This document shows positions 23,094-36,228 of a DNA stretch of 36,278 nucleotides, piece by piece. Each line of letters begins with the position of its first letter. Positions within the stretch are counted from its first letter, which is position 1. Below the pieces are notes generated by a model. It worked only from the letters and a program-made list of their open reading frames with translations, made no database searches and was not told where the DNA came from. A program made the position numbers and the translations under genes. Location of the stretch: positions 1-36,278 of the forward strand of contig JAPUER010000076.1 of the NCBI GenBank assembly GCA_027492485.1, read 5' to 3'. The stretch is from Betaproteobacteria bacterium (lineage in GTDB: Bacteria > Pseudomonadota > Gammaproteobacteria > Burkholderiales > Casimicrobiaceae).

Positions 23094-23120
23094 AGTCTAT
23101 CGCCGGCTCGGCGAAGTCAA
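23094..23120 (-). promoter_or_regulatory. Candidate promoter for truA-trpFBA
   Basis: On the minus strand TTGACT (23120-23115, overlapping the fimV stop) is followed after 15 bases by TAGACT (23099-23094), which ends 7 bases before the truA ATG. The -35 is good; the spacer is short. If used, the truA transcript would be nearly leaderless and the trp genes could be expressed separately from fimV. Confidence 0.35.
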
Positions 23121-25765
23121 CCGCCCAGCTTGGCCAGCATCGCCTTGGCTTCGGCTTGTTGCGTCTCGTCGCCGTCGTGAATTACTTCACGCAGGATTTC
23201 GCGCGCGCCTTCGCGGTCGCCCATCTCTTCGTAGGCGCGGGCCAAATCGAGCTTGGTCGAGGCGTCATGCCATTGACCATCGAGAATCGACGGCGTCGGG
23301 TCGACAAATCCGCCTCGACCGGCATCGAAGCTCAGATCGAGCATCTCCGGCCGCATCGACGGGCCGACGGTACCGAGGTTGGTCGGCGTCGCGGTCGAGA
23401 AGTCGGTGAAGTCCATCGCCGATTCCGGCAACTGGCCAGCCGAAGTGGCTTTCTTCAGTGAGGCTTCGAGTTCGGCCAAATCCTGTTCCAGCGATTTTTT
23501 GCCGCCAACGGCCAGATCGCCCGCCACGACCGGTGGCGCCACCGGAACGACTGCGACCGGCACCGGCGCCGGAACTGGCGTACTGCTCGGCTTGGCGATC
23601 GTCATGCCATCGAGGACGAAGTCCAGCGAACTGGCACTGGGTGGTGCCGACGCCACGTCGAGGCTGCCGGGTCGCAAGCCGGGAGCGGTCGGTGTGTCGA
23701 ACGTGGCAACGCTGGCAACCGCTGCCGTCGCTGCCACGGCCGCCGCGACCGGTGCTGCCGATAGCGCCGCGCTTGGCGTCGGCGGCGCTGCGGTGGAGCC
23801 GCTGCCGGCGAGCGGATGGCCAGGGAAGTGGGCGGTAGCGATGTCGGACAGCTTGGCGCGGTAGTCGTCGCTCGCGTCCATCGCGCTGATGTCGTTCGCC
23901 AGCTTGTCGAACGCATCGCGCTTGCCCTGCGCGGCGCAAATCTCGGCCAGTTTGGTCGCGACGTCGGCGCGCTGCGGATCTCGCAATAGCGCTTCGCGCA
24001 GGATTTCTTCGGCCTGAGCTTCGCGACCGTAGGCGATGTAAACCTCGGCCTCGGCCACTGGATCGACTTCACCGGAGTCGATGGTGCCCATGCCGGAACG
24101 GCTGAACTGGCTCTGCACCGGAACGTCGTTGGTCTTGACCACGCCGAGCCCGGAGGTGCCGAACACGGTATCCGGATTCATCGTGTTCACCACCGGGTCG
24201 GCGACCTTCGAGGTGACGGTCGGCACGTCGTCCTTGCGCCGGCGACCGAACAGGAAAAAGCCGGCCAGCCCGAGCACGCCGAGTCCTGCCGCGGCGATGG
24301 GGATCGGGTTCTCGCCGATGAAGCCCATGATGCCGTCGTCGGAAGCCGGAGCTGGCGGCGGTGGCGTCTTCGGCGCCGCCTTGGCAACCGGCGGCGTTTC
24401 CGCAGCAGGCGGTGGCACGACAGCCGCTGGCGCCGGTGCGGGTTCCGGTGCGGGCGTCGGCGCCGCGGCTGGGGGCGGTGGCGGTGGCGATGTCACGACC
24501 GGGGCCGGCGCGGGCGCTGGTGGTGGCGGCGGAGACGCCACCGGAGCCGGCGGCGCAACGACCGCTGCCGGGGCGGGCGCGGGTTTCGGCGGCTCCACCG
24601 TCGCCGCTGCGACGGGCGCCGGTGCTGGCGGCGATGCGTTGGCTTCCTTGGCCTTCGCCTGCGCGTCGGCCATGGCGTTGCTCTTGAGCGTCAGCGCCTT
24701 TTCAAGATCCTGCTTCGTTTTTTCCAATTGTGCTGCGCGCGACTGCTCTTCCTTGAGCGCCTTGGTGGCGGCGACCTTGGATTCGGTGTTGGCCTGTTTG
24801 CCGCGCTCGCCCTGCGAGAGCTTCAGCTTGTCGGCGCCGCCGCCGGCGGTGCCGGTGTCGGCAACGGCGCCGGACACGCGACCGCTGGCGCGCGCAGTGG
24901 GTCGGTCCGCCGCGACGCTGGGCACCGCGTCGGCAACGCGGGCAACATAGCCACGCCAGCTGGTGGCCTGGGCGCGCACTTCGCTGACAGCGCTGTTTTG
25001 CGTAATACCTTGCGCGTCGGACGCCGAGGGCAGGCTGAGCGTGGCGCCGGCACGCAAGCGGTTGATGTTGCTTCCGACGAAAGCATCGGGATTGGCGCGC
25101 TGGATGGCGATCATCAATTGTTCGATGGATACGCCCGGCAGGCTGTTGCGACCGGCGATGCCGGACAACGTGTCACCGGATTTCACGGTGTAGCTGCCGC
25201 CTTCGGTGCCGCGCGCCGCACTGGTGGAGGGCGCGACCGGCGTCGGCGCTGCCACCGGTGCCGGACGACCGGCCGGTGCCGGTGTCGGGGATGGGGTCGG
25301 CGCCGACAACGGTGCCATCGGCGGTCGCGCGGGTTGTGCCGGCTCAATGATTTGTGCCGCGGCCGCCCCCGGAGGATCGAGCAAGAACACGTATTCGCGC
25401 ACCAGGCGACCGGTGCTCGAATTCACTTCGAGCAGGATGTCGAGATAGGGGTCGTTGATGGCCTGGCCGCTGGCGAGGCGGATGTACGGCGTGCCGTTGG
25501 GACGCCTCAGCACCTGGGCACGCACGGTCTGCAGGATGCCCTGATATTCGACATTGGCAGCGCGGTAAACCGCCGGCGAGGCGACATTGACGCGAATCGA
25601 ATCGACGTCGTCACCCGGCGCGACCGACAGATCAACCTCTGCGACCAGCGGCTGGCCAAGCGCGGTCGTCACATTGAGACGCCCGAGCCCGAGCGCGGAA
25701 ACATCCGATGCCGCGATGAGACCAGCGAGGACGAGTGATACGACGAGTGGTTTTTGGCGCAGCAT
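23117..25765 (-). CDS. fimV: FimV-family polar/motility hub protein
   Basis: Inner-membrane protein of 882 residues that in relatives organises type IV pili, polar localisation and cAMP signalling. The signal peptide is at 1-24, followed by the FimV N-terminal domain (LGLGRLNVTTALGQPLVAEV). A LysM peptidoglycan-binding domain is at about 191-246 (SYTVKSGDTLSGIAG). A charged coiled coil runs 320-372 and a Pro/Ala-rich stretch 378-475. One transmembrane helix is at about 487-506 followed by GRRRKDD. TPR-like repeats lie near 580-640, and the conserved FimV C-terminal motif (KLDLARAYEEMGDREGAREI) is at the end. The domain order is canonical. No pilus genes are in the window. Confidence 0.95.
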   Translation of the reverse strand: MLRQKPLVVSLVLAGLIAASDVSALGLGRLNVTTALGQPLVAEVDLSVAPGDDVDSIRVNVASPAVYRAANVEYQGILQTVRAQVLRRPNGTPYIRLASGQAINDPYLDILLEVNSSTGRLVREYVFLLDPPGAAAAQIIEPAQPARPPMAPLSAPTPSPTPAPAGRPAPVAAPTPVAPSTSAARGTEGGSYTVKSGDTLSGIAGRNSLPGVSIEQLMIAIQRANPDAFVGSNINRLRAGATLSLPSASDAQGITQNSAVSEVRAQATSWRGYVARVADAVPSVAADRPTARASGRVSGAVADTGTAGGGADKLKLSQGERGKQANTESKVAATKALKEEQSRAAQLEKTKQDLEKALTLKSNAMADAQAKAKEANASPPAPAPVAAATVEPPKPAPAPAAVVAPPAPVASPPPPPAPAPAPVVTSPPPPPPAAAPTPAPEPAPAPAAVVPPPAAETPPVAKAAPKTPPPPAPASDDGIMGFIGENPIPIAAAGLGVLGLAGFFLFGRRRKDDVPTVTSKVADPVVNTMNPDTVFGTSGLGVVKTNDVPVQSQFSRSGMGTIDSGEVDPVAEAEVYIAYGREAQAEEILREALLRDPQRADVATKLAEICAAQGKRDAFDKLANDISAMDASDDYRAKLSDIATAHFPGHPLAGSGSTAAPPTPSAALSAAPVAAAVAATAAVASVATFDTPTAPGLRPGSLDVASAPPSASSLDFVLDGMTIAKPSSTPVPAPVPVAVVPVAPPVVAGDLAVGGKKSLEQDLAELEASLKKATSAGQLPESAMDFTDFSTATPTNLGTVGPSMRPEMLDLSFDAGRGGFVDPTPSILDGQWHDASTKLDLARAYEEMGDREGAREILREVIHDGDETQQAEAKAMLAKLGG

Positions 25766-33267: not shown

Positions 33268-36228
33268 ATGAACAAGCGCTGGCTTCTCAAAGCCACCGTA
33301 GAAGGCATGCTTCTCGGTGGGTGTATCGCGTTGGCCGCTCCGGCCTCGGCGGGCATGATCAAGGATCGACATGGCAACGTAGGCTACGACACGGCTACGG
33401 AGTGCGATGCGGCCGTCGCCGCGGGCACCGCGAAGTATTACCAACCGTTCACCGAACACCCGCCGCTCAAGCGTGACGGCGAGGCCTCGACCAAAGTCTT
33501 GCAACTGCGTGAGCTGTCCGCCGCACACGGCGGCGGCGCCTGCGACCTCGGTGTCGGCCGCGCCGGCGAGCGCGACGGCGTGAGTCGCGAACTGATCGGC
33601 AAGTGGGTGCCCTACGCACCGAACATGGCGGTCAACGCCTACTTCGACGGCGCCGGCAAGCTCGTTCGCGCCACCATGAAGCAGTGCGACAATCATTTCG
33701 GCGACGCTATCCCCCGCCCGGTCGGCATTGGCGGTACCGCAGGTACCGAGTGCTTTGTCAATGTGGCGATTGCCCCGCGCTTCGAAACGAAAACCGAACA
33801 GGTAGTGAAAGTCGCGGCGACCAAGCGCTTTGAAACGGTTCCGGCCACCTACAAGACCGTGTCCGAGCAGGTGCTCGTGCAGCCTGAGATGAAGCGGCAG
33901 ATTCCGGTCGCACCGACCTACAAGACCGTCTCGGAGCAGGTGCTCGTGCAGCCGGAAACCAAAAAGTTCATCCCGGTGCCGGCAACCTACAAAACGGTGT
34001 CGGAGCAGGTGCTGGTGCAGCCGGAAACCAAAAAGTTCATCCCGGTGCCGGCAACCTACAAAACGGTGTCGGAGCAGGTATTGGTGACCCCGGAAACGAA
34101 ACGGCAAATCCCGATTCCGGCCACCTTCAAGACAGTGACGGAAACGGTCGTGGTACGCCCGGAATCGGTTCGTGAAGAGCCGATCCCAGCCGCGTTCAAG
34201 ACGGTCAGCGAGCAGGTGCTGGTACGCCCGGAAAGCAAGCGCATCGAAGTGCTTCCGGCGACTTACAAGACCGTAAGCGAGCAAGTCGTTGCCACGCCGG
34301 AGCGCAAGGAAATCAAGGTGGTGCCGGCGGCCTACGAAGATCGTACCGAGCAGGTGCTGGATCGCCCCGCCACAACGCGCACCGAAACCATTCCGCCGAC
34401 GTTCAAGACCGTTGCCGAACAAGTGCTCGTGACCCCGGAAACGATCCGCTACGAGCCGATCGAAATCCCGACCCGTCAGGTCAGCGAACAGGTGCTGCTC
34501 AACGCGGCCAGCTCGCGGCTTGAAGTGGTACCGGGTACGACCAGGACAGTCAGCGAACGCGTCCTGGTGCGCGAGGCCAGCAAGCGTCTGGAGACCGTGC
34601 CTGCGGTGTTCGAAACCGTCAGCGAGCGCGTCAAAGTCGCCGACGGCGCGCTGGAGTGGAAAAAGGGCCGTGCCTGGATCAGTCAGGCGTTAAACGTCCG
34701 CCCGGCCAAAGGCTTTGCGGTGGGTACCGACGGCAAAGTGGAAGGCGCACGCGTGGACGCATCGGGCGCCGCACCGGTTGCTGGCGGTGTGGTGACGACA
34801 GCTTCGCCCGCCAGTGCCGCTGCGGCAGCCGCTGCCGGCATCAAGCTCACGCCGGGGGCGATCATCGGCAACAACGACGACGTGTGGTGCCTGGTGGAAA
34901 TTCCCGCGCAGTATCAGACGATCACGCGTCAGGTGCTGAAGTCGCCGGCGTCGGTGCGCGAAGTTGAAGTCGCGCCCGAATACGCCACGGTTGAACGCCA
35001 AGTGGTTGATCGCGCGGCGGCAACGCGCACCATCGAGATCCCGGCGACCTATCAAACGCTCACCCACACCGTGATTGACGTCGAGCGCATGAAGTCGATG
35101 GGCTACAAGTTCGACGACAAGGGCGACATCGTGGCCATGCCGAACGGCGAGCGCGTGCTGCGTGCCGCCTCGGTACCGGGCTGGACCGGCACGGTCAGTG
35201 GCGGCGTTGCGGGCGCCGCTGGCGTGGGTGCCAAGGCGGCGGGAGCGGGCAAATCGAACGCCATCACCGACAAGACTGCCGGCGCGGCCTCCGGGATTGA
35301 AGGCTACGTTCGCGAAGTCAAGGTCGCTGCGGTGTACAAGTCGGAAAGCCGTCAAGTGGTGGATCGTTCGGCCAGCGTGCGTACCATCGAAGTGCCCGCG
35401 ACGTACAAAACCGTCAAGACGCGCGTGATGGTACGCCCCGCAGCGACGGAAGAAGTGGTCATTCCGGCCACCTTCAAAACGGTCAGTCGTCAGGTCGTCG
35501 ACAAACCCGCGAGCAGCCGCGAAATCGCAATCCCGGCCGAGTACAAGACAGTCGAACGTCGCGTAGTCGATACGGCGGCCTCGACGAAGAAGATCCCGGT
35601 ACCCGCTGAAACGCAACAAGTCTCGCGTCAGGTCGTCGACAAGCCGGCCTCGTTCCGTGAGGAGCTGATTCCGGCGGTGTACAAGACCGAGTCGCGTCAG
35701 ATCGTCGACAAACCCGCCTCGTTCCGCGAAGAGGTCGTCGCGGCGGTCTACAAGACCGAGTCGCGTCAGGTCGTCGACAAACCCGCCTCGTTCCGCGAAG
35801 AAGTCGTCGCCGCGGTCTACAAGACCGAGTCACGCCAGGTCGTCGACAAGGCCGCTTCGTTCCGCGAAGAATCAATCCCGGCGGTGTACAAAACCGAAGC
35901 CCGTCAAGTCGTAGATCGTGCCGCCGCAGTACGCGAAATCGATGTGCCTGCGGTGTACGAAACCATCTCCACGCAAGTTAAGGTGGCGGATGCCAGCGTC
36001 GAGCGCCGCTCGGTGTTGTGCGAGTCGAACGCCACGCCGGCAAAGATCCGCGAAATTCAGGCCGCACTGAAGGAAGCCGGCTTCAATCCCGGCCGGGTTG
36101 ATGGCGTCATCAAGCCTGCAATGATGCAGGCGGTCACGCGCTTCCAGGAGTCCATGCGTCTGCCGGTGGATGATGGTCGCGCCATCAACCTCGACACGTT
36201 GCGCGCCCTCAAGGTAACACCGAACTAA
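33268..36228 (+). CDS. Secreted 23-residue-repeat protein with peptidoglycan-binding-like C-terminus
   Basis: I do not recognise a named family for the whole protein. From ATG 33268 it has 986 residues. Residues 1-29 are an export signal (KRWLLK, hydrophobic core, PASAG); LLGGC at 15-19 could instead be a lipobox. Residues 30-170 form a non-repetitive head with Cys46, Cys92, Cys140 and Cys162. Three blocks of a 23-residue unit follow: 172 to about 460 (13 units, consensus YKTVSEQVLVxPE), 549-607 (2.5 units) and 690-920 (10 units, consensus YKTESRQVVDKPASFREE). Ala/Gly-rich linkers separate them. Residues 921-986 resemble a PG_binding_1 domain (IREIQAALKEAGFNPGRVDG). It is probably a periplasmic or outer-membrane stalk tied to the cell wall; this is inference. 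An in-frame TTG at 33199 with AAGGAG is an alternative start. Confidence 0.85.
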   Translation: MNKRWLLKATVEGMLLGGCIALAAPASAGMIKDRHGNVGYDTATECDAAVAAGTAKYYQPFTEHPPLKRDGEASTKVLQLRELSAAHGGGACDLGVGRAGERDGVSRELIGKWVPYAPNMAVNAYFDGAGKLVRATMKQCDNHFGDAIPRPVGIGGTAGTECFVNVAIAPRFETKTEQVVKVAATKRFETVPATYKTVSEQVLVQPEMKRQIPVAPTYKTVSEQVLVQPETKKFIPVPATYKTVSEQVLVQPETKKFIPVPATYKTVSEQVLVTPETKRQIPIPATFKTVTETVVVRPESVREEPIPAAFKTVSEQVLVRPESKRIEVLPATYKTVSEQVVATPERKEIKVVPAAYEDRTEQVLDRPATTRTETIPPTFKTVAEQVLVTPETIRYEPIEIPTRQVSEQVLLNAASSRLEVVPGTTRTVSERVLVREASKRLETVPAVFETVSERVKVADGALEWKKGRAWISQALNVRPAKGFAVGTDGKVEGARVDASGAAPVAGGVVTTASPASAAAAAAAGIKLTPGAIIGNNDDVWCLVEIPAQYQTITRQVLKSPASVREVEVAPEYATVERQVVDRAAATRTIEIPATYQTLTHTVIDVERMKSMGYKFDDKGDIVAMPNGERVLRAASVPGWTGTVSGGVAGAAGVGAKAAGAGKSNAITDKTAGAASGIEGYVREVKVAAVYKSESRQVVDRSASVRTIEVPATYKTVKTRVMVRPAATEEVVIPATFKTVSRQVVDKPASSREIAIPAEYKTVERRVVDTAASTKKIPVPAETQQVSRQVVDKPASFREELIPAVYKTESRQIVDKPASFREEVVAAVYKTESRQVVDKPASFREEVVAAVYKTESRQVVDKAASFREESIPAVYKTEARQVVDRAAAVREIDVPAVYETISTQVKVADASVERRSVLCESNATPAKIREIQAALKEAGFNPGRVDGVIKPAMMQAVTRFQESMRLPVDDGRAINLDTLRALKVTPN
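33781..34647 (+). repeat. Repeat block A: 13 units of 69 bp
   Basis: Twelve full units and one partial unit, in frame, encode residues 172 to about 460. The consensus is [Y/F]KTVSEQVLV-x-PE-x-KR-x-x-x-x-PAT. The stretches 33949-34017 and 34018-34086 match at 67 of 69 bases, a recent duplication; most other units have diverged at third positions while keeping the protein pattern. Confidence 0.9.
34912..35088 (+). repeat. Repeat block B: two and a half diverged units
   Basis: Units start at Tyr549, Tyr572 and Tyr595 (YQTITRQVLKSPASVREVEV, then YATVERQVVDRAAATRTIEI, then a broken YQTLTHTVIDVER). They are intermediate in sequence between block A and block C and are enclosed by Ala/Gly-rich linkers. 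Confidence 0.8.
35335..36027 (+). repeat. Repeat block C: ten units of 69 bp
   Basis: Units run from Tyr690 to residue 920, with consensus YKTESRQVVDKPASFREE. Units at 35680-35748 and 35749-35817 match at 66 of 69 bases. The last unit changes to YETISTQVKVADASVE and leads into VLCESNATP before the peptidoglycan-binding-like domain. Confidence 0.9.

What the first reader, a model, noticed from the sequence alone, without database searches (positions are those of the whole stretch)
33268..36228. Large secreted protein built from about 26 copies of a 23-residue unit, capped by a cell-wall-binding-like domain
Seen: export signal, a Cys-containing head, three blocks of a 23-residue unit (13, 2.5 and 10 copies) and a C-terminal segment resembling PG_binding_1. 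Each unit alternates beta-prone (VSEQVLV) and charged/Pro (PETKK, IPVPAT) stretches. Inference: the units form an elongated beta-rich stalk of regular length that projects from or spans the periplasm while the C-terminus grips peptidoglycan. I know no named system with this layout, so it is the best candidate here for undescribed biology.
Basis: partly seen in the sequence, partly recalled or inferred. Interest (0 to 1): 0.75.

Follow-up and report, generated by a model that had tools for sequence, protein, structure and literature searches.

The report
Expanded beta-repeat wall-binding envelope protein
A bacterial gene encodes a large exported protein made mostly of 25 copies of a 23-residue beta-strand unit with a cell-wall-binding domain at its end; it is an enlarged version of a widespread but unnamed family that may link or space the outer membrane and the cell wall.

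Summary
Window 33268-36228 encodes 986 residues: signal peptide, Cys-containing head, 25 units of 23 residues (13+2+10, plus a partial unit) and a C-terminal PG_binding_1 domain. Nine of 16 other same-genus genomes hold orthologues; dN/dS against the nearest is 0.037. But the layout is not unique. A compact form (Cys, 4 units, WKxG, Cys, 4 units, Trp, Cys, PG_binding_1) is widespread: 271 confirmed stretches in GTDB genomes, best 80 kept, titles from Pseudomonadota to Desulfuromonadales, Melioribacteraceae, Krumholzibacteriota and Campylobacterales. Of those 80, 71 have 8 units, 8 have 10, one has 7; nine proteins of the window's genus have 19-28. A strict lipobox pattern fits 49 of 70 compact forms. 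AlphaFold gives alternating 12- and 7-residue strands. The head also occurs before an outer-membrane barrel in another family, which argues for a periplasmic position. Repeats and head have no Pfam or NCBIfam model over cut-off in the proteins scanned. Best reading: a periplasmic wall-bound beta-repeat spacer or tether. Localisation, overall shape and function are untested.

The parts
33268..33351 (+). Sec-type signal peptide (residues 1-28, motif ASA before GM; judged by eye). LGGC at residues 16-19 is shared only with L002 and absent from seven other full-length orthologues, so a lipoprotein is unlikely
33364..33759 (+). Cys-containing head domain (residues 33-164; Cys 46, 92, 140, 162)
   Evidence: 72% mean column identity in 9 genus members; precedes an outer-membrane barrel in another family; no Pfam family over cut-off
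33772..34668 (+). array 1: 13 units of 23 residues (residues 169-467), ending in EWKKG
   Evidence: profile and shuffle test
34669..34887 (+). linker between array 1 and C541 (residues 468-540)
34888..35040 (+). C541 (CLVEIPAQY motif) and array 2: 2 full units (residues 546-591)
   Evidence: motif shared with relatives
35041..35325 (+). partial unit and Gly/Ala-rich insertion seen only in the genus proteins (residues 592-686)
35326..36015 (+). array 3: 10 units (residues 687-916), some nearly identical
36019..36225 (+). C918 and PG_binding_1 domain (Pfam match residues 926-971)

Best explanation
It is an exported protein, most likely periplasmic, and a repeat-expanded variant of an unnamed family of peptidoglycan-binding beta-repeat proteins. 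Shown: signal sequence, 25 units, PG_binding_1 domain with its predicted fold, kinship with compact 8-unit relatives, strong purifying selection. Inferred: PG_binding_1 holds the C-terminus on peptidoglycan; the units stack as a semi-rigid spacer; the head sits in the periplasm and contacts an outer-membrane or periplasmic partner. Many compact relatives carry a lipobox and could link outer membrane and wall directly. The working role is a spacer or tether at the outer membrane-peptidoglycan interface whose reach is set by unit number.
For: PG_binding_1 in the window protein and in 61 of 61 compact proteins scanned; fold match. Shared skeleton of three Cys, WKxG and the CLVE-P-A motif. Compact Cys spacing is rigid: of the 70 loci (of 80) that fit the spacing window, 55 are exactly 114/98 and all 70 have 98 between Cys2 and Cys3. 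Units: 8 in 71 of 80, 10 in 8, 7 in one; 19-28 in nine genus proteins, window included. Strict lipobox pattern in 49 of 70; looser pattern 61 of 80. Strands of 12 and 7 residues alternate, block pLDDT mostly 75-85 in the arrays with dips to 39-62 between modules. With unit position held fixed, the strongest covariation is p14-p17 across the Pro-Ala turn (9.9 and 9.5 SD of all pairs; no shuffle control). dN/dS 0.037 overall, 0.025 and 0.028 in arrays 1 and 3 against L002. The head precedes an OMP_b-brl domain over cut-off in 7 of 7 fusion proteins scanned and stands alone with a signal sequence in L193; that both ends of an even-stranded barrel face the periplasm is established knowledge.
Against: The full-length model is poor outside the parts that have relatives in the alignment (mean pLDDT 46.4, 703 of 986 residues under 50); the compact model has pTM 0.42. 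No localisation or binding data. No partner gene: among 442 neighbours within three genes of 80 loci, apart from one genus (Kangiella), the largest shared groups cover 9, 8 and 5 loci at mixed positions; context differs between genus members (where the centre was misassigned in L182). Six of 16 same-genus genomes gave no match and one only a 57-residue PG-domain piece with a stop (at most 8 candidates scored per genome), so it is dispensable in the genus. The window protein is probably not lipidated, so what fixes its N-terminus is unknown. PG_binding_1 also occurs in enzymes and phage proteins.
Confidence: 0.55

Rival explanations
1. The protein is a scaffold or adaptor for wall enzymes: the repeats are a binding platform and PG_binding_1 targets it to the wall.
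For: PG_binding_1 commonly accompanies wall enzymes; structure matches include lytic transglycosylases and the protease CtpB. A small LysM-type protein lies within three genes in 5 of 80 loci (domain named by eye).
Against: No catalytic domain at E <= 1 in the window protein; no enzyme neighbour shared by many loci.
Confidence: 0.2
2. The protein is a cell-surface or matrix fibre: repeats exposed outside, PG_binding_1 a wall anchor on the inside.
For: Large size, DNA-level tandem copies and unit numbers of 19-28 in the genus are common in surface proteins.
Against: No outer-membrane export or barrel domain in the window protein. The head's other setting, before an outer-membrane barrel, is a periplasmic position. 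Arrays are under purifying selection.
Confidence: 0.15
3. The repeats are low-complexity filler without a fold, spread by slippage.
For: Tandem DNA copies of 81-86% match; low pLDDT over much of the full-length model; no PDB match for the repeat part.
Against: dN/dS 0.025-0.028 in arrays 1 and 3; exact 23-residue spacing inside blocks; fixed unit number and Cys spacing in most compact forms; strands at pLDDT mostly 75-85 where the alignment is deep.
Confidence: 0.05

Closest known systems
Unnamed compact relatives, e.g. L093, L108 (Lysobacterales MAG), L155 (Alcanivorax sp. DSM 26293), L137 (Neptunomonas japonica)
   Same: Cys, units, WKxG, Cys with CLVEVPAEY-type motif, units, Trp, Cys, PG_binding_1; same 23-residue unit
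   Different: 8 units (4+4) instead of 25; mostly 320-420 aa as read (starts uncertain); often a lipobox; no head domain
10-unit forms in Thiobacillus, Gallionellaceae and other titles (L134, L147, L151, L152, L156, L160, L171, L172)
   Same: same skeleton with extra units
   Different: 458-523 aa in seven (381 in L172, start uncertain), 10 units, a different short N-terminal region
PF01471 PG_binding_1 proteins (SleB, SltB3, CtpB domains)
   Same: C-terminal domain over cut-off and fold matched
   Different: no catalytic domain; the rest of the protein is unrelated
Head plus outer-membrane barrel proteins of another family of the order (L177, L178, L179, L189-L192)
   Same: homologous head domain
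   Different: head is followed by OMP_b-brl/OmpA_membrane; no repeats, no PG_binding_1
OmpA/Pal/Lpp outer membrane-wall tethers
   Same: proposed role only
   Different: different wall-binding domain; no OmpA C-terminal domain or Lpp match in the window protein

Membership tests
PF01471 PG_binding_1 domain protein | HMM score over the curated cut-off | tested here: met
   41 bits against 23
PF01471 PG_binding_1 domain protein | fold | tested here: met
   predicted model against 6tci: TM 0.77 on target, rmsd 2.0 over 67 columns
PF01471 PG_binding_1 domain protein | binding to peptidoglycan | not testable with these tools
   none
unnamed compact beta-repeat PG-binding family | three Cys, WKxG, CLVE-P-A motif and C-terminal PG_binding_1 in this order | tested here: met
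   C162, WKKG 464-467, C541 in CLVEIPA, C918
unnamed compact beta-repeat PG-binding family | 8 units and Cys spacing 114/98 | tested here: not met
   25 units; spacing 379/377 (residues): an expanded variant, not a compact member
unnamed compact beta-repeat PG-binding family | lipobox (common, not universal) | tested here: not met
   LGGC shared only with L002 among nine full-length genus proteins; compact forms 49 of 70
OmpA/Pal wall tether | OmpA C-terminal domain | tested here: not met
   no match at E <= 1
autotransporter or surface adhesin | outer-membrane export or barrel domain | tested here: not met
   no match at E <= 1
TonB/TolA-type force transducer | uncleaved N-terminal inner-membrane helix | tested here: inconclusive
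   an AxA-type motif suggests cleavage; no signal predictor was available

The most novel reading that the evidence does not exclude
The 23-residue unit defines an undescribed class of wall-bound beta-repeat envelope spacers found in several diderm phyla. Reach is set by unit number, held at 8 in most compact forms read and raised to 19-28 in one genus, where a head otherwise joined to an outer-membrane barrel takes the place of the lipid anchor: a built-in ruler of envelope spacing.
Probability: 0.25. Interest if true: 0.72.

Novelty: new variant of a known kind. Interest (0 to 1): 0.5.

Why it matters
How diderm bacteria hold outer membrane and wall at a set distance is understood mainly from Lpp, Pal and OmpA (general knowledge). 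A widespread family with a wall-binding domain and a countable repeat, without a family model for its repeats, offers natural variants of 7, 8, 10, 12 and 19-28 units to test whether repeat number sets spacing. The head, shared with a barrel protein, gives a lead to the partner.

Tried and rejected
Mobile-element origin: no match for the window protein in phages or plasmids; one weak plasmid match for the compact form (Methylobacterium); none of 58 pattern matches in viral contigs confirmed. Not indicated.

Partner genes: a first neighbour clustering took the wrong frame as centre in 15 of 80 loci; it was rerun with the right centres. Kangiella synteny apart, the largest groups cover 9 loci, 8 loci (a cyclic-nucleotide-binding-like protein, named by eye, at -1, +1 or +2) and 5 loci (a LysM-type protein, by eye). 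These are too few and too scattered to claim a partner. Eight genus loci gave no conserved context; the centre was wrong in L182.

Fold of the repeats: Foldseek rows for phi29 collar, lysenin and aerolysin-type pores have TM about 0.06-0.15 and very large rmsd, likewise the top rows of the viral library; rejected as meaningless. VIA-align was not available.

Covariation: the first run mixed unit types and was set aside; the stratified run gave p14-p17 and otherwise no clear strand register.

Family models: all NCBIfam rows are under their cut-offs; those seen for the window and the compact proteins fall mostly on the PG domain. In one search one member each of 61 also met DUF6224 (5.5e-4) and ATPgrasp_ST (5.9e-4); taken as chance.

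Literature: five searches of the held PMC library, listings and abstract starts only; no paper was opened. The five peptide strings gave 0 papers. 'Undescribed' rests on these searches and on the family scans only.

Full report
What is there. The frame 33268-36228 encodes 986 residues: signal sequence, Cys-containing head, 25 units of 23 residues in blocks of 13, 2 and 10 with a partial unit after the second block, and PG_binding_1 at the end. Lag-23 identity is 0.345 against a maximum of 0.111 in 500 shuffles.

It is a constrained gene. Of 16 other genomes of the genus, nine hold orthologues: six as one match over nearly the whole length, G003 and G009 as several matches in one open frame, G004 over two contigs. 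G016 has only a 57-residue PG-domain match with a stop inside, and six have none; at most eight candidates per genome were scored. In the 43 other genomes of the family, five have matches, all confined to the PG-domain end. Against the nearest orthologue, L002, dN/dS is 0.037, and 0.025 and 0.028 in arrays 1 and 3. Against L003 and L004 it is 0.107 and 0.091 overall and 0.27 and 0.35 in the head, with synonymous sites near saturation, so these are rough; three region values could not be computed.

It belongs to a wider unnamed group. A 333-residue protein in another family of the order (L011, the same contig as L093) shares the skeleton. With an alignment of four relatives, 344 stretches matched in GTDB genomes, 271 were confirmed, and the best 80 were kept and read. 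Titles name many Pseudomonadota and also Desulfuromonadales, Deltaproteobacteria, Melioribacteraceae, Krumholzibacteriota and Campylobacterales; most are MAGs, so single placements may be wrong. In unit number, 71 of 80 have 8, 8 have 10 and one has 7. Seventy of 80 fit the Cys spacing window (first gap 110-130, second 96-100); 55 of these are exactly 114 and 98 and all 70 have 98 in the second gap. The ten left out include the eight 10-unit forms. Sixty-one of the 70 were aligned and scanned, and all 61 match PG_binding_1. In the window's genus nine full-length proteins, the window's included, have 19 to 28 units.

Shape. AlphaFold with 61 compact sequences gives mean pLDDT 75.2 and pTM 0.42: strands of 12 and 7 residues alternate through both arrays with Pro-Ala between most of them, followed by the helical PG domain; confidence dips between modules. 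The full-length window model has mean pLDDT 46.4; the same strand pattern appears mainly where relatives lie in the alignment, and the PG domain is confident. With unit position held fixed, the strongest covariation lies between positions 14 and 17, which flank Pro-Ala, as a tight turn would give; it has no shuffle control. The overall shape is not shown. If strands lay side by side at about 0.48 nm, 25 units of two strands would measure about 24 nm; this is arithmetic, not a result.

The head. In draws of 300 genomes of the order it was found in five, four of them of the window's genus, and in a draw of 398 of the phylum only in the window's own genome. In the family of the fifth, 10 of 83 genomes have it. 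Seven such proteins were scanned and all seven carry an outer-membrane barrel over cut-off; one more, L193, is a free-standing exported head, and others were partial. By recall of gene content that family looks like Neisseriaceae; no call names it. Since an N-terminal extension of an even-stranded barrel lies in the periplasm, the head is probably periplasmic.

How it may work. Wall-binding end and head would both lie in the periplasm with the units between. A strict lipobox pattern fits 49 of 70 compact relatives, which could tie outer membrane to wall; the window protein has instead a signal that looks cleavable, and the head. A spacer or tether is the simplest reading, at 0.55. An adaptor for wall enzymes and a surface fibre remain open.

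Known or new. The domain and the general role are known. The repeat and the head have no family model over cut-off among the proteins scanned, and units above 12 were seen here only in the window's genus (L070 has 12). Hence a new variant of a known kind.

Noticed in passing
window 23117-25765 (-): An 882-residue FimV-like protein (named by recall) with a LysM-like motif and a Pro/Ala-rich middle, near truA and trpB; no family scan was run.
   Followed up: no
G009 contigs C60 and C58 (L008, L026): One genus member has a full copy and a second fragment at a contig end, a possible paralogue.
   Followed up: partly
L072 42-1346 and 1567-2328 (-): Two neighbouring genes for repeat proteins of 434 and 253 residues with no Pfam match at E <= 0.01, so no PG_binding_1: a related unit in another copy number.
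   Followed up: partly
L075, L080, L086: Short (about 190-230 aa) exported proteins with Cys and a few units; L075 has no Pfam or NCBIfam match, so the unit also exists without the wall-binding domain.
   Followed up: partly
L193 1420-1896: The head domain stands alone as a 159-residue exported protein.
   Followed up: partly
L108, L122 and other loci: A cyclic-nucleotide-binding-like protein (by eye) lies within two genes of the compact gene in 8 of 80 loci, in both orientations; meaning unknown.
   Followed up: no
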